In this document: positions 3,719 to 28,546 of the stretch, in pieces
How the letters are laid out: every line of letters begins with the position of its first letter
How positions within the stretch are numbered: position 1 is the first letter of the stretch
NCBI RefSeq assembly: GCF_026914185.1
Contig: NC_070562.1
Coordinates: 1 to 64,000, forward strand
Direction: 5' to 3'
DNA from: Puccinia triticina
Lineage: Eukaryota > Basidiomycota > Pucciniomycetes > Pucciniales > Pucciniaceae
DNA length: 64,000 bases
Notes under the pieces: generated by a model
The model's input: the letters and a program-made list of their open reading frames with translations, nothing else
What the model was told of the DNA's origin: nothing
The model's database searches: none
Made by a program: the position numbers and the translations under genes

Positions 3719-4290
3719 AGAACATTTGGTCACCATTCAATTTACATTTGGGCCATTTTTCCACACCAATGTGCATGCTTGCAGGCCAAATAGCAGGATT
3801 TTCACATGTTTTTGCTGTTTTGCACCAGTCTGTAATGCCACAATCAGTGAGGAAAGCATTTAGTATGGAATATTATTCAATTGGAAAAATTTGGGCACCA
3901 TTAAATTTACAGTTGCGGCATTTTTCCACCCCAATGTGCATGCTCACAGCCTAAATAGCAGGAATTTCACCTGTTTTTGCTGTTTTGCACCAGTGTGTAA
4001 TGCCAAAATCAGTGAGCAGAGTTTTTATTATGGCAGATTATTCAATGGAGAACATTTGGGCAATATTCAATTTAAATTTGCACCATTTTTCCACACCAAT
4101 GTGCATGCTTGCAGCCTAAATAGCATGATTTTCACCTGGTTTTGCTGTTTTGCACCAGTGTACGTAATGCCACAATCAGTGAGAAAAGCATTTAGTATGG
4201 AATATTATTCAATTAAGAACATTTGGGGACCATTCAATTTAAAGTTGCAGCATTTTTCCACCTCAGTGTGCACCCTTGATGAGGGAAAAT
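3715..4290 (+). repeat. 165-bp tandem repeat, about 3.5 copies
   Basis: The anchor CCAATGTGCATGCT recurs at about 3766, 3931 and 4096, with a degenerate fourth copy at 4262, giving a period of 165-166 bp. Because 165 is divisible by three, a Phe/Cys/His-rich frame stays open through it (3891-4298). I read that frame as a by-product of the period and not as a gene. Confidence 0.85.
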
Positions 4291-16751: not shown

Positions 16752-17456
16752 CCCGGGTTGTTTCGTCGAGGATCTTCAAGTGGGGGCTGATTTTTCTTCA
16801 CACAAGGGCAATCCGGTCCCCAGTGACCCCATTCCCAGCAAACATGGCAGGGATAGTCGGGTGTCAGGTATTGCTTCGCCCAGTTGTCCAGAGGAGGAAC
16901 CGAAGCCGACGAAGTCAATTGTGCTCCCTGCCCCGACTGCCTTGGCATACCACGGGATCCACGAAATCTGCCTCGACCGCGCGCACCTCGAGATTGTCCG
17001 GGTGGTCCACCACAATACTCCTGAGACGACATTGCCATTGCCGAAGCCGTCCCTGCAGCCGACGCTGACTGGTGAAGTCGGGTTGCCATTTGAAGAATTT
17101 CCTCTGGGCTGATCACAAAATCCGGTTTGATTGCGATCCGAGCATCCATGGAGTCAGCGATGGCCTGCTGATATCATTGGGCAATGGAGTGGAAAGACAA
17201 AGATAATAACTTATCTTTGTTCAATCCCCCCAGCCTCTCATCCAAATCGTACCAGCTCCGCTTCAAAGCCTCATAGCTGGACGATAGCGAGTCTGATGCA
17301 TCTGGGGCCTGTGCAATGTCAGACCAACGCCAAAGGAGGAGAGACCAGGAGGTGCCTGCAAATCGTCCTTTCAAGGAGTTGTAGGCCCCATACGCTGTCA
17401 ACCCGTTGAGGGAAGGGCGTAGCGCCGAATCAATTGAGTGTTGCAAAAGCGCCAAG
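16634..17456 (-). pseudogene. Copia gag, C-terminal part
   Basis: The minus-strand frame from 17456 continues the gag N-terminal part beyond the CACTA insertion. It contains a typical helical capsid-like stretch, an in-frame TGA at about 17174, then a Gly/Arg-rich basic segment and a single zinc knuckle CxxCxxxxHxxxxC (PCHVCWEWGHWGPDC). The TGA follows an Ala-Gln pair and could be a decayed CGA codon. The frame overlaps the start of pol by about 100 bp. Confidence 0.85.
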
Positions 17457-18029
17457 CACTACCAAGATGGATGAATTTGCAATGTCGTATATTGATCAAT
17501 ATAGCGTATATTGATCAATTTATATTGATCAATTTTTTTGTATTCCTCTTTATACCTTTGTCTGTGTTCCATGTCTCCTTAATACTCTTCTATAATCTAT
17601 CTCCTTCCCCTGTATTTGCTTCAAGCCACAGGAATCTTTTTTTTTGTCTGATAACATTCATAAATTTATACATACACCATTCAATTCTACATGAAAAAAA
17701 TACACTGCAAGGTTTAGGATTAATCCAGAGTGGCTGAGGGGGATCAATTTTTTTTTCTTGTTTTTTTTACTTCAACAATTGATGTTATCAGAAGTCTCCT
17801 AATCTACTTTTGTTTCAAAAAAGGAAAAACATTGACCCCTGACCTCTATCAGTATCATGATACAATCCTGCACACATTGCTAATTTGGTTGGTTGAACTT
17901 CCTGAAGATATTGCACATCATACTTGAAGTGCTACATGCATAGAAGGCCTTTTTGAAATTAGTTTACCATGGTTTAGCATATTTTTGTCAGGTTCTTTTT
18001 TTTATCAACTTTTGTTGTCAACCACAGAT
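17457..18029 (+). repeat. CACTA left terminal inverted repeat
   Basis: Aligns base for base with the reverse complement of 22287-22858, with scattered substitutions and small indels. The outer 80 bp contain three TATTGATCAAT palindromes, likely transposase-binding subterminal motifs by analogy with the superfamily. Confidence 0.92.
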
Positions 18030-18744
18030 CCACTGTCGCCTCCGTGGCGCACAGCAAATGGATGGATAGGGGGGGGAGCAGCTGTTGCGCCTCCATGCCG
18101 CACTGCGCATCACATGTGCCTGCCGCTCCTACTGGAAGGTTTCTGCCCTGACACAGTCGGGACCAGAAGGGATGGGGCTCAACCTGTGTGAAGGGAGCCC
18201 CTTGTCTGCCGGCCTGTTGGCCGACTGTGTGTGGGACGAAAAAGGGAGGAGGAGTGTCTTTGGCGTCACCAAGAGTGGGAACTCTCTGCCAAAGCCAGGT
18301 GCCTCCTCCAAGCAGGACAGAAACCTCGTGCTCGGGGAGTGGGGTTTGAGGCGCCAAGCCCACTCCCTGTGAAAGCACGATGGGTGGGTGGGTGGAGCAA
18401 AAAAGGAAATCAGGAACTAGGTTCCTGAGTGACGTATAGTGAGCGGGGAGTAGGAGCTAGGAGTGATCCCTAGGTTCCACTCCGTTCGCCTGTGTGCCCT
18501 TCTTAAAGGAAGGCCGCTGCTCTGTTGCAGCTCTCAGGCAGTCCTGGGAGCCTACCCTCGGGCGGAGGGAAAACCAGTCCCACGCTGTCGTTGTGCTGGA
18601 CTAGTTGCTCCGCGGATCAAATGCCGTGCTAGCCCGTGGAGTTTCTCACCTCGGTGTGAGACTCCCGTGCTAAGCTGCTGGCTGGTCCTCCGGCTGCGTG
18701 GACACCAGGGTACTCGGAGCTGCGCTCTGCCGCCCCCTTCTCTT
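18030..18744 (+). other. GC-rich 715-bp segment present in only one arm
   Basis: The right arm reads straight from ACAGAT into TAATGAGGAA, whereas the left arm has 715 bp between these words. The segment is markedly GC-richer than the element, has no long frame starting with a clear gene signature, and contains several short hairpins (for example GGAGTTTCTCACC...GGTGTGAGACTCC at about 18637). No clear duplication flanks it. It may be a captured host fragment, a SINE-like insertion, or ancestral sequence lost from the right arm. Confidence 0.7.
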
Positions 18745-18834
18745 TAATGAGGAATATTTCCACATAAAATTTCATTGGACAATTTTTCTGCATAGAAAAC
18801 CCAGAAATATTGTGTTTGGGGTCACATCCATTAT

Positions 18835-21800
18835 GCAGCAGCTACAGTTTGATCAGTTTGCAAATATCACTACTTTGGTAGTTTCTTGGTGTTTCTGCCA
18901 CTATATCTCATCCCAGTGTGGGAATCTTTCTGCAATATGGTTACCAAAATGGTTGGAGGCCCCTAAAGATTCATCATGTACCTTTAATGACCACAAAACC
19001 CCCAAATGTAGCAGATACAGTCTGATCAGTTCCCAAATATCACTACTTTGGTATTTCTTGGTGTTTCTGCCACTATATCTCATCCCAGCGTGGGAATACT
19101 TCTGCCATATGGTTACCAAATGGTTACAGGCCCCCAAAGATTCATATGTACCTTCACTGACCACAAAACCTCCAAATGTAGCAGCTACCATCTGATCAGT
19201 GCCCAAATATCACTGCTTTGGTATTTCTTGGTGTTTCTGCCACTATATCTCATGCCAGCGTGAGAATAATTCTGCCATATGGTTACCAAAATATTATATA
19301 GCCCCCAAAGATTCATTATGTACCTTTACTGACCACAAAACGTCCAAATGTAGCAGCTACAATCTGATCAGTTCCCAAATATCACTGACACTACTTTGGT
19401 AGTTTCTTGGTGTTTCTGCCACTATATCTCATCCCAGCATGGGAATACTTCTGCCATATGGTTACAAAAAGGTACATAATGAATCTTTGGGGGCTTTTTA
19501 ACATTTTGGTAACGATATGGCTGAATTATTCCGACGCTGCAATGAGATATAGTGGCAGAAACACCAGGAAACTACCAAAGTAGTCATATTTGTGAACTGA
19601 TCAGACTGTAGCTGCTACATTTGGGGGTTTTGTGGTGACAAAAGGTACATAATGCATTATTGAGGGCCTGTCAAAATTTTGATAACCATATGGCAGAAGG
19701 ATTCCCACGCTGGGATGAGATATAGTGGCGGAAACACCGAGAAACTACCAAAGTAGTGATTTTGGGAACTGATCAGACTGTAGCTGCTACATTTGGGGTT
19801 TTGTGGTCAGTAAAGGTACATAATGAAGCTTTGAGGGCTTTTTAACATTTTGGTAACCATATTGCAGAATTATACCCACGCTGGGATGAAATATAGTGGC
19901 AGAAACACCAACAAATACCAAAGTAGTGATAGTTGGGAACTAATCAGACTGTAGCTGCTACATTTGGGGGTTTTGTGGTCAGTAAAGGTACATAATGGAT
20001 CTTTGGGGCCTCTAAACATTTTGGTAACAATATGGCAGAAGTATTCCCACGCTGGGATGAGATATAGTGGCAGAAACACCAAGAAACTACCAAAGTAGTG
20101 ATATTTGGGAACTGATCAGACTGTAGCTGCTACATTTGGAGTTTTTGTCGTCAGTAAAGGTATATAATGAATTTTTAGGGCCTCTGAACATTTTGGTAAC
20201 CATATGGCAGAAGGATTCCCACGCTGGCCAGAGATATAGTGGCAAAAACACCAAGAAACTACCAAAGTAGTGATATTTGCAGGGAACTGATCAGACTGTA
20301 GCTGCTACATTTGGAGGTTTTGTGGTCAGTAAAGGTATTTAATGAACGTTTGGAGGCTTTTAAACATTTTGGTAACCATATGGCAGAATGATTCCCACGC
20401 TGGGATGAGATATAGTTGCAGAAACACCAAGAAACTACCAAAGTAGTGATTTTGGGAACGGATCAGACTGTGGCTGCTACATTTGGGGGTTTTGTGGTCA
20501 GTCAAGGTACATAATGAGTCTTTGAGGGCCTGTAAACATTTTGGTAACCATATGGCGGAAGGATTTCCACGCTGGGATAAGATATAGTGGCAGAAACACC
20601 AAGAAACTACCAAAGTGGTGATATTTGGGAACTGATCAGACTGTAGCTGCTACACATGGGGGTTTTGTGGTGACTAAAGGTACATAATGAATGTTTGGGG
20701 GTCTTCCAACATTTTGATAACCATATGGCAGAAGGATTCCCACGCTGGGATGGGATATAGTGGCAGAAACACCAAGAAACTACCAAAGTAGGGATATTTG
20801 CAAACTGATCAGACTGTAGCTGCTACATTTGGAGGTTTTGTGGTCAGTAAAGGTACATAATTAATCTTTGGGGGCCTGTGAAAATTTTGGTAACCATATG
20901 GCAGAAGGATTCCCACGCTGGGATGAGATATACTGGCAGAAACAACAAGAAACTACCAAAGTAGTGATATTTGGGAACTGATCAGACTGTAGCTGCTACA
21001 TTTGGGGGTCTTGTGGTGACTTAAGGTCCAAATTGAATCCTTGGGGGCCTTCCAACATTTACGTAACCATACGTCAGAATGATTCCCACGCTGGGATGAG
21101 ATATAGTGGCAGAAACACCAAGAAACTACCAAAGTAGTGATATTTGGGAACTGATCAGACTGTAGCTGCTACATTTGGGGGCCTTGTGGTGACTTAAGCT
21201 CCATAATGAATCCTTGGGGGCCTTTCAACATTTTGGTAACCATATTGCAGAAGGATTCCCACGCTGGGATGAGATATAGTGGCAGAAACACCAAGAAACT
21301 ACCAAAGTAGTGATATTTGGGAACTGATCAGACTGTAGCTGCTACATTTGGGGGTTTTGTGTGACTAAAGAGACATAATGAATCTTTGGGGGCCTTCCAA
21401 GATATTGGTAACCATATGGCAGAAGGATTCCTACGCTGGGATGAGATATACTGGCAGAAACACCAAGAAACTACCAAAGTTGTTATATATGGGAACTGAT
21501 CAGACTGTAGCTGCTACATTTGGAGGTTTTGTGGTCATCAAAGGTACATAATGAATCTTTGGGGGCCTGTAAACATTTTGTTAACCATATGGAAGAAGGA
21601 TTCCCACGCTGGGATGAGATATAGTGGCAGAAACACCAAGAAACTACCAAAGTAGGGATATTTGTGAACTGATCAGACTGTAGCTGCTACATTTGGGGGT
21701 TTTGTGGTCAGTAAAGGTACATAATGAAACTTTGGGGCCTCTTAACATTTTGCTAACCATGTGGCAGAAGGATTTGCACACTGGGATGAGATATAGTGGC

Positions 21801-22200
21801 AGAAACACCAAGAAACTACCAAAGTAGTGATATTTGGGAACTGATCAGACTGTAGCTGCTACGTTTGGCGTTCTTGTGGTGACTTAAGGTCCATAATGAA
21901 TCCTTGGGGGCCCGTCAACATTTTGGTAACCATATGGCAGATGGATTCCCACACTGGGATGAGATATAGTGGCAGAAACTACCAAAGTAGTGATATTTGT
22001 GAACTGATCAGACTGTAGCTGCTACATTTGGCGGTTTTGTGGTGAGTAAAGGTACACGAAGAATGTTTGGGGGCATTTAAACATTTTGATAACCATATGG
22101 CAGAAGAATTCCCACACTGTGATGAGATATAGTGGCAGAAACACCAAGAAACTACAAAAGTAGTGATATTTGGCAACTGATCAGATTGTAGCTGCTGCAT
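18835..22200. repeat. 173-bp satellite in inverted orientation blocks
   Basis: The anchor CTGATCAGACTGTAGCTGC recurs at about 19599, 19771, 19942, 20114, 20289, 20461, 20634, 20807, 20980, 21153, 21326, 21498, 21671, 21843, 22006 and 22179, a period of 171-175 bp with one short unit. To the left of about 19465 roughly 3.5 units run in the opposite orientation. The array therefore forms a large hairpin with arms of unequal length. The open frames in it on either strand are by-products of the repeat. Confidence 0.95.
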
Positions 22201-22286
22201 AATGCATGTGTCCCAAAACACAATCTTTCTGGGTTTTATATGCAGAACAATTTTTGGAAGAAATTTTATGTTGAAATATTCCTCAT

Positions 22287-22858
22287 TAATCTGTGGGTGA
22301 TAACAAAAGTAGATAAAACAAAGAACCCAACAAAAATATGCTAAACCATGGTAAACTAATTTCAAAAAGGCCTTCTATGCATGTAGCACCTCAAGTATGA
22401 TGTGCAATATCTTCAGGAATTTCAACCAACCAAATTAACAATGTTTGCAGGATGGTATCATGAGAGAGGTCAGGGGTCAATGTTTTTCCTTTTTTGAAAA
22501 AAGTAGATTTGGAGACTTCTGATAACATCAATTGTTGAAGTAAAAAAGAAAAAGAAAAAAACTTTGAGACCCCTCAGCCACCCTGGATTAATCCTAAAAC
22601 TTGCAATGTCTTTTTTTCATGAAGAATCAAATGGTGTATGTAGAAATTTATGAATTTTATCAGGCAAAAAAAAAAAAAAAATTCCTGTGGCTTGAAGCTA
22701 ACACAGGTGGAAGGAGAGAGATTATAGAAGACTATTAAGGAGACATGCAACACAGAAAAAGGTATCAAGAGGAATAAAAAAAATGATCAATATAAATTGA
22801 TCAATATACGCTATATTGATCAATATACAACATCACAAATTCATCCATCTTGGTAGTG
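22287..22858 (-). repeat. CACTA right terminal inverted repeat
   Basis: Inverse of 17457-18029. It ends TGGTAGTG at 22858, directly before the AAG duplication. Confidence 0.92.
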
Positions 22859-23432
22859 AAGATGCCGTTTGAAGTAGCCGGGTCGGTTGCCGAGGTGTTG
22901 GTTTCAAAAAACTTTTCGTTATGAGTGATCCCTCTGACCATGTTGTTCACTGCCGCCGACCAAAGAGGGAAATTGCTGCCATCCAGCGATAGTTGAGGAT
23001 CGACCGACTTTCCGAGTTGCTGCCATTGGAGTTGATTGGCGGCCAGAGCATTCGAAGCAGTTGCAGCTGTCTGGTTGGATGCCGTGAGATTTTGAATGAG
23101 AAGAGTCTTGAGGAGGTTGTGGTCAATACCGCCTAGGCCAGATTTATCAAGTTCGCGGGCCAGAATGGTGTCAAGCGACTCAGGAGGCAGGGATTCATCG
23201 GATCCGGGCTGAACTGTAGGCGAAGTTTGATTTGGTGGGGGTTGGTTGGTAGAGGATGACGGAAAAGGAATTTGAGACTGGTCGTGCAACATGTTGTCAG
23301 AGGATAAGGAGGAATCGGCGGATAGGAAGGGGTTAGAGTCAAAGGACTCTTCCGGGGTTGACGGGGTGGGGTTACTCTGGCTGTGAAATCAGGAGTAACA
23401 AGGTCTGGCCGATCTGACCGTGTATTAACCAT
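22859..23432 (-). pseudogene. Copia gag, N-terminal part
   Basis: The frame starting with ATG at 23432 runs into a second frame near 23360 in a C-rich stretch, which indicates a 1-nt indel in the first 25 codons. The second frame stays open down to the CACTA insertion at 22858. The segment is Pro/Ser/Thr-rich, then helical with an L-W-S-A-A motif, as in the UBN2-type gag of Copia elements. The frame is cut by the CACTA element, and its last codons before the stop are element-encoded. Confidence 0.85.
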
Positions 23433-24750: not shown

Positions 24751-25191
24751 AAAATAAAAAATAAACAGTTGAGTCTCAGTATTCTTTGAGTACAGCGAGC
24801 AATAAGCGAGTGTTAATTATAATGAGTGGCAGACAAAGGAAGCAGGCGGATGAAAAATTAACTGAAAGTGGGCACGGAGTTGGTGATGTCCGGGGTAAAA
24901 CATTGCCGAAATGCTGAAATAGCTGGACCTCCTGCCCATGGTTTGAGGCAAAGATATTGCCAGTTGAGTGTACACATATTTATGTAACTCGCAAATAAAT
25001 GTATTTTTTTCATTTCCCACCTCAAAGCGCTCGAGTTGCGCCTTCGACGCTCTTCGAGGGCGTCGCGCCCAGCGGCCAGGAGGACCTATGGTCGGGGCTT
25101 GTTTAAGGTCGCACGGTGCACCACCCCCTTCGCAGAACGCACACTGATTCCTCTGGATACCTTCGCTTAAATTAGAACCGAAGCAATCATT
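24751..25191. other. Upstream region of the SNF2 gene
   Basis: About 440 bp without coding potential. It holds the promoter of the plus-strand remodeller gene. A GC-rich palindromic patch (CGACGCTCTTCGAGGGCGTCG) with its core near 25045-25068 is the only structured piece. Confidence 0.4.
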
Positions 25192-28100
25192 ATGAGCTCA
25201 AAGCGACCGTTCGAAGACTTGAGTGATAGCGACACTAGCAATACCGGCCGCGTCGATGATGAGTCTGCCAATGGTCCGGTTGCAAAGCGTTTAAGGAGCC
25301 GTAACAAACCCGTGGTGGCTCAGAAGCCAAAGTCGACTGCTCGCCCGAAGCCAAGAAAGACTCGAAAGCCTGCTCACAATCCCGAATGGCAGGCCCAACA
25401 GGACGCGTTTCAATCGTCGTATCAGGCCTCCATCGTTTCGTTTCGAGCGCGTCAACGACGATATCTCAGTACGCATCGTGACCTGTTCATATCACTTTTG
25501 CCGCCAGAAAGGCGCAAACACTTTGAGAAGCACATTGAAGACCGACCTACCAACGGTGTTACCCTAGCTGACCGAGAGCCAATCCCTAACGAAGTATCGC
25601 CTTGGAAGCGCGTTCCCCAACCGGAATCAATCAAGGGCGAGTTGAAATCTTATCAAATCACCGGCCTTAGCTTTCTGGTTTATCTCCACTCAAACGGAAT
25701 GAACGGCATCTTGGGCGATGAGATGGGACTCGGAAAGACTCTGCAGACCCTCGCTTTATTGGCTCATCTAAAAGAAGGATCTGCTGAGAGCTCTCAGTTC
25801 CCACATCTAATTATCTGTCCTTTGTCGGTCCTTTCATCTTGGGGCAATGAAATCAAGCGTTGGACCAATCTCTCATTCATCAACTTCCATGGCACTCACG
25901 CTCGCAGGAAGACTCTCAAAGCTAGTTTGATCGGACTTGGTGTTCAAACCCCGGGTGAAGGCTCACCAGAACTGGTCGTGGCTTCTTATGAATCATATCA
26001 AGCCGAGGAATCCTGGTTCAAGCACCGTTCCTGGGGCTACGTGATTTTGGATGAAGGCCACCGGATCAAAAATCACGAAACCCTGATGTCTCAATCCTTA
26101 CAGACTATCAGGTCGACCCACCGTTTGATTTTGACCGGAACACCGGTACAGAATAACCTAATCGAATTATGGTGCTTATTCCATTGGCTTTTACCCGAAG
26201 TTTTCCCTGAACACACGCGTGCAAGGTTCAAGACGGCTTTCGACTTAACCGCTGGTAGTTACGACTCGCAAATGCTAAAATCAAGTCACGCGCTATTGAA
26301 ACTGCTCATGCTCAGGCGTACCAAGGACAGCGTCAAAGGCGAATTATCTGTTCCAGCCCGGGAGGAGATTGACTGTTCGTGTTCTTCTTTCCGTTCAGTC
26401 ACCTGGATATGTTTTGCTAACCTAACCGTTTATTCTGGTCAGTATACATTCCTATGTCCAGTTGTCAAAGATTCTGGACCAAGCGATTGATCATGCGTTG
26501 TGATACCAGCGCCTTAAAGTAAGCTTTTACAATTATCTTCTATGTTAGCGATGTAAAATTGAGTGTCACCTCTCCCCCAACCAAAAAACAGGGATATCTT
26601 TAACGGACCCTCAATCAAAACGGAAAATAATGAGAATCTAGCCGATAGGACCGATGCGGCATTGAAGACAGAAGGAATCCTCCCCCCTGGAACGACTTTG
26701 TCAACTTTTCAACCGGCTGCTAAGCTCTCTCAGCAAATCCAGTATGCTTTGGAAAGTGAGGAAGGCAGTACGAATTCTCAATCTTATAGAAAATTAATGA
26801 ATCTTTTGATGCAATTGAGAAAAGTTTGCAATCAGTGAGTTTTATTTCTATTTGATCTTTGTACCCGCTCTTCATTTTTTAAGCTCCCAGTCACTAATAC
26901 TTCATGTACCAATTTACAGTCCGTATCTGATGCCTAATTCGGAACCCGAGCCCTTCCAAATTGCCGAACATGTTGTCAACGCATCCTCGAAGCTCGTCAT
27001 GCTTGACAAGATGTTAAAATCTGAATTGCCCAAGGGGAAACGGTTCTTGATATTCTCCGGATTTACCTCTATGCTCGACATTTTGGAGGACTTTATGAAC
27101 TTGCGTAGTATAAATTACCTCAGATTGGATGGTTCAACTCCTGTCGCGCGACGGAACCTGGCTATTCGGATTTTCCAACAATCCAAGACAACGGATACCG
27201 TCAGATCACATGGATCTTCTTCCCCACGAGTCGTTCCCATATTCTTGATTTCTACTAAAGCGGGTGGCTTGGGTATCAACCTCACTGCTGCAGACACGGT
27301 CGTCCTCTACGACTCCTCTTGGAACCCTCAAGTCGATATCCAAGCAATAGCCCGAGCTCATCGAATCGGGCAGACCGAGAAAGTTACTGTCTACCGCTTA
27401 ATTTGTGCAGAATCAGTCGAGCAGCAGATGATCGGCCGTTTACGTAAAAAGCTTTATCTTTCGTTGAAGATCTTGGACTCCAAGGGGACTAACTCTGATA
27501 ACACATTGGGAACTAGCGATGAAACAATTGATGAGGAAACCACCATGAAAACTTCGATGTCTACTTCCGAACTTTGTGCAATACTGCGTGGCGGTGCTAG
27601 CTCCTTGCACAAGCATTGGGGACAAGCAAGCGATTCAGACGAAACACTTAAAGTTGATGATGATGAGCGCACTGGATATACCGAATTCTTGAATGCCTCC
27701 TTCGATGAAATCTTGAATAAAGCCAAGGAATTCGCCAAGATCGAGCAAACGAAACTTCAAATAGAAGTCGGCGGTTGTGAACCATCCCATTCCGATGAAG
27801 AAATCGTCAAGAAGATTGAAGAAGAAGAGCTAGGTCTCTTGCGGGGCGCTGAAGTAGTCCGCTGTCGGCTATTCGAAGGCAAGAAATACACGGCAAGCAA
27901 CAAAGACATACTCCATGAATGGGACAACCTGCAATCCAAGCGAGCCTCCAAAGCGACAATCACAATCATCGATGGACACGCGGTCCAAGCCGAGTCGGTT
28001 AACAACGCCCGATGGCAAGCAGTCAAGACGCTCACGAGTGATCCAGTCATACTCGCAAAACTGCAAGATCAAAAGCGGAAAAAGAAGGTCTTTGAACATG

Positions 28101-28546
28101 AGGAAACGTGTATGTGTTGCCATGACCCCGGAAATCTATACCTGTGCGCACAATGTCCCCGAGTTGCCCATTCCAAGTGCATGGGCTACACACCACCTGC
28201 GAACCTGAACTTTATCTGCAGTCAACACAAATGTGTGGGCTGCCAGCGAGGTGCCGCCGAAGCAGGCGGTATGCTATACAGATGTCAGACTTGTCCGGAT
28301 GCGTACTGTGAAGACTGCCTCGCTCTTGATAACTTCTATTCGATGGGCGACACTCTCCCCGAATTCATGATGCTTGGCTATGGACCAGTCTCACAGGCTC
28401 ATTACATTCGATGCATTGAATGTCTGAACCATTTTGAAGCGAATCCGGAAACCAAGGCGATCTGGGAGGCCGAAGAAGAACGCCTCAAGGAACAACTGGC
28501 TTTGAAAAATGATCTTCCATCAATTAGTGTTATCAATGAATTCTGA
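25192..28546 (+). CDS. SNF2-family chromatin-remodelling ATPase with C-terminal zinc fingers
   Basis: Four exons, 25192-26374, 26443-26518, 26592-26834 and 26920-28546, join in frame to 1042 aa. The N-terminus is basic with a KRLRSR-type nuclear signal. The DEXH ATPase lobe (about 155-440) has GDEMGLGKT at about 174 and DEGH at about 286, followed by LTGTPVQNN. The second lobe (about 510-665) has FSGF, STKAGGLGINL and QAIARAHRIGQ. An acidic linker follows. Residues 896-975 carry two Cys/His clusters (CMCCHDPG...C.QC, then CVGCQRG...CQTCPDAYCEDC) resembling paired PHD/extended-PHD fingers that read histone tails. The layout is closest to ISWI/CHD-type remodellers but has no chromodomain or SANT-SLIDE that I can see. 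It is nuclear and presumably slides nucleosomes. The exact subfamily is not settled. Confidence 0.93.

What the first reader, a model, noticed from the sequence alone, without database searches (positions are those of the whole stretch)
17457..22858. A CACTA transposon that is mostly a 173-bp satellite folded back on itself
The element has textbook CACTA ends and a 3-bp duplication. Instead of a transposase it carries about 20 units of a 173-bp repeat, with roughly 3.5 units in one orientation and 16 in the other, inside inverted arms of more than 570 bp. The whole 5.4 kb is one asymmetric hairpin. This is a way to mobilise and amplify satellite DNA, and a potential source of small RNA or fragile sites near a telomere.
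Basis: partly seen in the sequence, partly recalled or inferred. Interest (0 to 1): 0.8.

Follow-up and report, generated by a model that had tools for sequence, protein, structure and literature searches.

The report
Satellite-armed foldback CACTA transposon family
In what looks like a rust-fungus genome, a jumping DNA element without a gene of its own is built mostly from a 173-base repeat set as two mirror-image arrays, and its many relatives show how a mobile element can spread and resize satellite DNA.

Summary
Window 17457-22858 has CACTACCAAG ends, a 3-bp AAG duplication, arms of ~660 bp, 3.7 satellite units beside the left arm and 15.9 in opposite orientation beside the right, and no transposase.

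The 23-bp end occurs 574 times in the genome (reversed-pattern control 0) and a satellite seed 8,348 times (control 0), roughly 1.2% of 122.8 Mb. Target duplications flank 7 of 10 copies with both ends in hand and 8 of 10 further pairs (wrongly paired flanks 4 of 90).

Window-type copies share one founder junction and two distinct arms, and their unit series correspond between elements, so arrays moved by transposition. A ten-unit duplication in one copy and a junction reversed relative to its arm in another show later resizing and rearrangement. No transposase-bearing member was found, from capped lists.

Best reading: a non-autonomous CACTA-type foldback family that disperses a satellite. 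Closest known: Tetris of Drosophila virilis and satellite-bearing Chenopodium CACTAs. New variant of a known kind. Elements are bunched on two of four chromosomes tested, so a centromere link stays open. Small-RNA and fragile-site claims are untested.

The parts
17454..17456 (.). left target-site duplication AAG
17457..18030 (+). outer left ('S') arm; tip CACTACCAAG; TGATCA at bases 37, 56 and 70 from the tip
18031..18743 (.). ~713-bp GC-rich insert in the left arm; absent from the 20 other loci (L009-L028) searched with it
   Evidence: only the window matches; relatives in the genome; edges
18744..18832 (+). inner part of the left arm
18833..19473 (-). short satellite array, 3.7 units
19455..19485 (+). 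inverted junction of the two arrays; 22 matches in the genome with up to 3 mismatches
19468..22200 (+). long satellite array, 15.9 units of 173 bp
22201..22858 (-). right ('L') arm, ends CTTGGTAGTG
22859..22861 (.). right target-site duplication AAG

Best explanation
It is a non-autonomous, CACTA-type transposon with foldback architecture: two ~660-bp inverted arms, each continued inward by an array of a 173-bp satellite, the arrays meeting head to head at a junction that is fixed within a subfamily. Shown here: a dispersed family with 3-bp target duplications; arrays inherited as blocks, with conserved unit order and two conserved arm types; later resizing by multi-unit duplication; one copy whose junction is reversed relative to its outer arm. 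Inferred: a transposase supplied in trans cuts at the CACTA ends, probably recognising the tip and the TGATCA-centred subterminal repeats; unequal exchange or slippage changes unit number; recombination between the inverted arrays flips centres and makes new junctions. Net effect: transposition seeds satellite arrays across the genome, which then grow, shrink and receive nested insertions.
For: Ends: 285 forward + 289 reverse matches to the 23-bp tip with up to 2 mismatches, control 0 and 0. Satellite seed: 4292 + 4056 with up to 3 mismatches, control 0 and 0. Satellite inward of the end: 19 of 20 fetched loci (L009-L028, 18 of them picked for a + end and 2 for a - end from the 40 matches; L021 is the miss, L026 has half a unit, in some the satellite comes after a nested insertion); 6 of 7 smaller loci (L002-L008), L008 the miss. 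Two arrays in - then + order: 9 of the 10 copies with both ends in hand, L018 being the exception. Duplications: 7 of 10 and 8 of 10 further pairs, control 4 of 90. Shared junction: seven of eight aligned loci directly, the eighth (L024) exactly on the other strand; 22 matches genome-wide, two of them 471 bp apart. Arms, 7 S and 7 L, L024 left out: S-S mean 0.968 (min 0.951), L-L mean 0.964 (min 0.945), S-L max 0.920. Unit order over seven elements: 165 of 876 adjacent unit pairs keep adjacent best matches in another element; 200 shuffles mean 77.6, sd 12.0, max 113. L009 units 13-22 repeat as 23-32 at 95-100%, nine of ten pairs above 98%.
Against: No transposase-bearing member was found. Of 38 end pairs one encloses a listed PF02992 match (I compared 45 of the 150 listed matches, those on C1-C4 and the first part of C5). 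It seems to lie in nested DNA, but 20 sparse probes gave satellite at only 3 places, all in one orientation, whereas the usual layout has opposite orientations at the two ends. A 271-aa Transposase_21 frame lies about 1.4 kb outside the right end of L011; a link was neither shown nor excluded. The tip's first 13 bp with another 14th base occur 7 times, control 1, one of them in the family itself (L028). TSD missing in L018, L028 and, at the inner of its two right tips, L024, and in 2 of 10 of the second set. With L024 included, S-S min is 0.905 and S-L max 0.980; its other arm fits neither type well, so the flip is not fully reconstructed. L037 has + then - arrays and no end in the stretch read, so some satellite lies outside the standard structure.
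Confidence: 0.82

Rival explanations
1. Internal-deletion derivatives: a transposase-bearing CACTA with satellite subterminal arrays on both sides existed (or exists elsewhere) and lost its middle several times, leaving the two arrays fused.
For: Junction phases differ between subfamilies: window -96/+67, L036 -14/+1, L019 -58/+12, L023 -5/+148. The genome holds at least 150 Transposase_21 matches (150 scored of 179 candidates).
Against: No copy with a transposase between its arrays was seen in what I read. One frame each from L018, L023 and L024 had no Pfam match; the frames with matches inside L013, L017, L022, L025 and L027 are retroelement frames. Different junctions could equally arise by recombination between inverted arrays.
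Confidence: 0.35
2. A pre-existing satellite was captured by a CACTA, as in Chenopodium, and the satellite is primary.
For: CACTA elements with a 171-bp satellite array near the 3' end are described in Chenopodium quinoa (PMC8978399, section 10). The satellite shows no significant similarity to the arm.
Against: Both sides carry the satellite in inverted orientation in the window type and in L019, L023 and L036, which have other junctions. On C1, 8 of the 10 satellite clusters visible in the capped list have an exact family end beside them (my reading, for one).
Confidence: 0.2
3. A centromeric or pericentromeric satellite with a chromosomal function, the transposon being incidental or centromere-targeting.
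For: On C1, 8 of 12 elements lie within 750 kb (about 6.1-6.85 Mb), reached by 0 of 5000 uniform placements; on C4, 7 of 14 within 750 kb, 38 of 5000. [quoted passage not shown] whether these are the same is unknown.
Against: No bunching on C2 (17 elements) or C3 (11 elements) at any of three window widths. Pooled nearest-neighbour test on C1-C3: 15 of 40 within 100 kb, uniform mean 9.9, max 22. 3-bp duplications show dispersal by insertion. Window widths were chosen after seeing the positions, and the C4 length used was a guess.
Confidence: 0.12
4. Assembly artefact or collapsed repeat.
For: Long inverted tandem arrays are hard to assemble; no reads were available.
Against: 574 end matches, exact 3-bp duplications at separate sites, and copy-specific nested insertions and unit series.
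Confidence: 0.03

Closest known systems
Tetris, foldback transposon of Drosophila virilis (PMC4079207; passages and section 17 read)
   Different: Authors report 8-10 bp target duplications and suggest Mutator; three structurally complete copies. Here: CACTA ends, 3-bp duplications, several hundred ends, junction subfamilies.
CACTA element Jozin with a 171-bp satDNA array, Chenopodium quinoa (PMC8978399; passages and section 10 read)
   Same: CACTA element carrying 32.5 units of a satellite of nearly the same length.
   Different: There the array is near one end (3') of an element that has a Transposase_21 domain; here arrays are on both sides, inverted, with no coding region found between them.
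Galileo and FB-type foldback elements (Galileo as cited in PMC4079207; FB recalled)
   Same: Long arms with internal tandem repeats; in Galileo these hold additional transposase binding sites.
   [quoted passage not shown] animal host.
24-kb CACTA with an 814-aa Transposase_21 frame nested in one of these arrays (L033-L035)
   Same: Same genome, CACTA-type ends, 3-bp duplication (ATA).
   Different: Ends CACCAGAGATG...CATCCCTGGTG; self-comparison shows only two short direct repeats, so it is not an obvious partner.

Membership tests
CACTA (En/Spm) superfamily | ends begin CACTA and end TAGTG | tested here: met
CACTA (En/Spm) superfamily | 3-bp target-site duplication | tested here: met
   7 of 10 and 8 of 10; control 4 of 90
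CACTA (En/Spm) superfamily | subterminal repeats near the tip | tested here: met
   TGATCA at 37, 56 and 70 in both arms of the window element; extra ~33-bp subterminal repeats in L011 and L018
CACTA (En/Spm) superfamily | mobilised by a Transposase_21 (tnp2) transposase recognising the same ends | tested here: inconclusive
   at least 150 PF02992 matches in the genome but none tied to these ends in the capped lists
Foldback elements | long inverted arms containing tandem repeats, able to form a hairpin | tested here: met
   hairpin by computed folding only
Foldback elements | usually no transposase gene | tested here: met
   no open frame over 173 aa in the window element
Foldback elements | arm and array length vary between copies | tested here: met
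   long arrays about 10 to 35 units in six window-type copies
Mutator superfamily (suggested for Tetris) | 8-10 bp target duplication | tested here: not met
   3 bp
Satellite DNA | long head-to-tail arrays of one unit | tested here: met

The most novel reading that the evidence does not exclude
A whole satellite family (about 1.2% of the genome) lives as the arms of a transposon because each unit works as an extra transposase docking site: it carries TGATCA, the core of the subterminal repeats, and ACTACCAA, bases 2-9 of the transposon tip. Arrays would then be bait that lets a gene-less element outcompete its autonomous partner, recombination between inverted arrays would keep generating new satellite subfamilies, and dense stretches of such elements could become satellite-rich chromosome regions.
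Probability: 0.2. Interest if true: 0.78.

Novelty: new variant of a known kind. Interest (0 to 1): 0.56.

Why it matters
How satellite DNA spreads to many sites is an old question. Here several steps can be read in one genome: block inheritance of arrays by transposition, one founder junction with 22 matches, later tandem duplication, and a copy with a reversed junction. It would add CACTA to the lineages that have evolved foldback form. My seven searches listed no paper whose title or abstract start describes such an element in a rust; one listed paper mentions unexplained long inverted structures in Puccinia triticina (PMC11656428), which this may or may not explain.

Tried and rejected
A 956-bp segment shared by the interiors of several copies looked like a core but is the LTR of a nested retroelement: copies ~8.55 kb apart in the same orientation. 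An 814-aa Transposase_21 gene between two satellite arrays looked like the autonomous partner but belongs to a nested CACTA with other ends. The 12.4-kb copy C1:6110667-6123033 looked long enough for a gene; the 9.0 kb of its interior that I read is satellite apart from ~0.95 kb. The 40-kb pair C3:576069-616381 encloses a PF02992 match; 3 of 20 probes were satellite, two near the left end and one near the right, all in the same orientation, which I read as a gene nested in a long array, though two separate elements would fit too. Homology of the satellite unit to the tip: the best alignment starts at tip base 2 in all three units tried, but 64, 433 and 416 of 1000 shuffles scored as well, so it is a lead only. 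TGATCA is well kept in units but not uniquely so: rank 15 of 169 and 10 of 169 hexamers in two subfamilies. My first clustering test was not significant; a scan by window after the report check was, on C1 and C4 only, so I raised the centromere rival from 0.05 to 0.12. Rfam over the element: no match at gathering scores. My notebook entry that 7 of 7 of L002-L008 show satellite was wrong; it is 6 of 7.
Full report
What is there. The window begins with (AACCCT)62 and is the first 64 kb of contig C5 of a genome of 122.8 Mb in 18 contigs. Copia proteins of Puccinia striiformis and P. coronata are among the nearest relatives of a window frame, and a passage of PMC12210899 gives 3.2 Mb as 2.6% of a P. 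triticina haplotype, i.e. about 123 Mb. I therefore take it to be a Puccinia haplotype, perhaps P. triticina; this is inference. The element spans 17457-22858 with AAG on both sides.

Anatomy. Left arm 663 bp, interrupted by a ~713-bp GC-rich insert at 18031-18743. Then 3.7 satellite units, a head-to-head junction at 19455-19485, 15.9 units in the other orientation, and a right arm of 658 bp. The insert was absent from the 20 other loci searched with it. It has two near-full relatives at 84%, a third covering 563 of 700 bases at 83%, and further partial ones. The element's longest open frame is 173 aa, and nothing in it reaches an Rfam gathering score.

A family, not a curiosity. The 23-bp tip with up to 2 mismatches occurs 285 times forward and 289 reverse, against 0 and 0 for the reversed pattern, so about 285 elements if all were paired. 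The satellite seed with up to 3 mismatches occurs 8,348 times, control 0; at 173 bp each that is about 1.44 Mb or 1.2% of the genome, about 14.5 units per end. Of 20 loci that I fetched out of the 40 best matches to the window's right end, 19 show satellite inward of the end; of seven loci brought in by the left tip, six do. Among the 100 tips listed (exact matches on C1 to part of C5) I could pair 38 by position: 3.5 to 52.6 kb, median 7.4 kb, 25 of them at most 10 kb.

It transposes. Three-base duplications flank 7 of 10 copies with both ends in fetched loci. L024 has a second tip 47 bp further out, beyond which the flank is CAT, as on its left side, which by my reading makes it an eighth. 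In ten further pairs of under 9 kb on C1 and C2, 8 show the duplication, and wrongly paired flanks match in 4 of 90.

Arrays travel as blocks. In window-type copies the head-to-head junction is the same: seven of the eight loci aligned show it directly, and L024 has it exactly on the other strand. It has 22 matches in the genome with up to 3 mismatches, two of them 471 bp apart. The arm next to the short array and the arm next to the long array are two distinct types: 0.968 and 0.964 mean identity within type, at most 0.920 between types, L024 excluded; with L024 in, the between-type maximum is 0.980. Units correspond by position between elements; for instance the last five units of the window's long array match the last five of L028 and L024. 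Adjacent units keep adjacent best matches in 165 of 876 cases against 77.6 (sd 12.0, max 113) in 200 shuffles. This is what transposition of a finished array predicts.

Arrays then change. L009 carries a ten-unit duplication (units 13-22 and 23-32 at 95-100%, nine of ten pairs above 98%), and L012 a two-unit one. Long arrays of six window-type copies run from about 10 to 35 units; short ones are 3.6 to 4.7 in five and 1.7 in L011; L024 has about 9 and 14. In L024 an L-type arm with L-type outer units sits on the side of the junction where other copies have the S arm. Its other arm fits neither type well. I read this as recombination between the inverted arrays, not fully reconstructed. Other copies have other junction phases, and the units of L036 are on average 78.8% identical to the window's. 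L037 has two arrays in the reverse order, without an end in the stretch read.

Who moves it. The genome has many Transposase_21 matches (150 scored of 179 candidates), so a trans-acting enzyme is plausible, but none was tied to these ends. Only one of 38 end pairs encloses one of the 45 matches compared, apparently in nested DNA, though the probes are sparse and their orientation is unusual. A 271-aa Transposase_21 frame lies about 1.4 kb outside L011. The tip's first 13 bp with a different 14th base occur 7 times, control 1. A 24-kb CACTA with an 814-aa frame and other ends is nested in one array. Both lists were capped, so a rare autonomous member could have been missed.

Where it sits. Elements are spread over C1 to C4, but not evenly: 8 of 12 on C1 lie within 750 kb (0 of 5000 uniform placements reach that) and 7 of 14 on C4 (38 of 5000), while C2 and C3 show no bunching (window widths chosen afterwards, C4 length guessed). 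A paper on a repeat-finding tool remarks on very long inverted structures in two putative centromeric regions of P. triticina chromosome 1A (PMC11656428, one passage). I cannot tell whether these are this family.

Comparison. It works like a foldback element and has the ends, duplication length and subterminal repeats of CACTA. Tetris is the closest foldback and Chenopodium Jozin the closest satellite-bearing CACTA. Seven literature searches listed no paper whose title or abstract start describes a CACTA foldback with satellite arms in a rust. I looked into six papers by passage or section and opened no other listed paper; the library lacks most subscription journals.

Untested. Small RNA, methylation, fragility, recombination rate, and insertion polymorphism between isolates. 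A study of stem rust (PMC8444563, passages only) links small RNAs to methylation of young transposable elements, which makes the small-RNA idea reasonable, but nothing here tests it.

Noticed in passing
window 18031-18743: GC-rich repeated segment inserted in the left arm; relatives at C15:2201187 and C6:6760116 (84%, near full length) and many partial matches; no clear target duplication by eye; nature unknown.
   Followed up: partly
L037 (C1:2735901-2745500): About 36 satellite units in + then about 18 in - orientation, the reverse of the usual order, with no transposon end in the stretch: perhaps two elements fused by a deletion, or a free satellite.
   Followed up: partly
G000 C1 about 6.1-6.85 Mb and C4 about 5.84-6.5 Mb: Dense stretches of these elements; possibly centromeric or heterochromatic.
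   Followed up: partly
L006 (C18:3273651-3276733) around 1501: One family member appears to abut or sit about 50 bp inside the tip of another, next to its TGATCAATATA repeats.
   Followed up: no
L011 4998-5162 and L018 8019-8216: The subterminal TGATCA-bearing piece is itself tandemly repeated in ~33-bp steps.
   Followed up: no
L033-L035: 24-kb CACTA with an 814-aa Transposase_21 frame, ends CACCAGAGATG/CATCCCTGGTG and ATA duplication, nested in a satellite array.
   Followed up: yes
L011 6607-7419: 271-aa Transposase_21 frame about 1.4 kb outside the right end of a family member.
   Followed up: no
window 17177-17455 and 22861-23388, - strand: Open frames run up to the element from both sides (93 and 176 aa, no Pfam match), so the insertion may split a gene; flanks were not joined.
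   Followed up: partly
window 3721-4272: A different subtelomeric tandem repeat, 165 bp x 3.3.
   Followed up: no
window 25171-28543: Frames with SNF2-related and Helicase_C domains in the subtelomere, probably one helicase gene.
   Followed up: no
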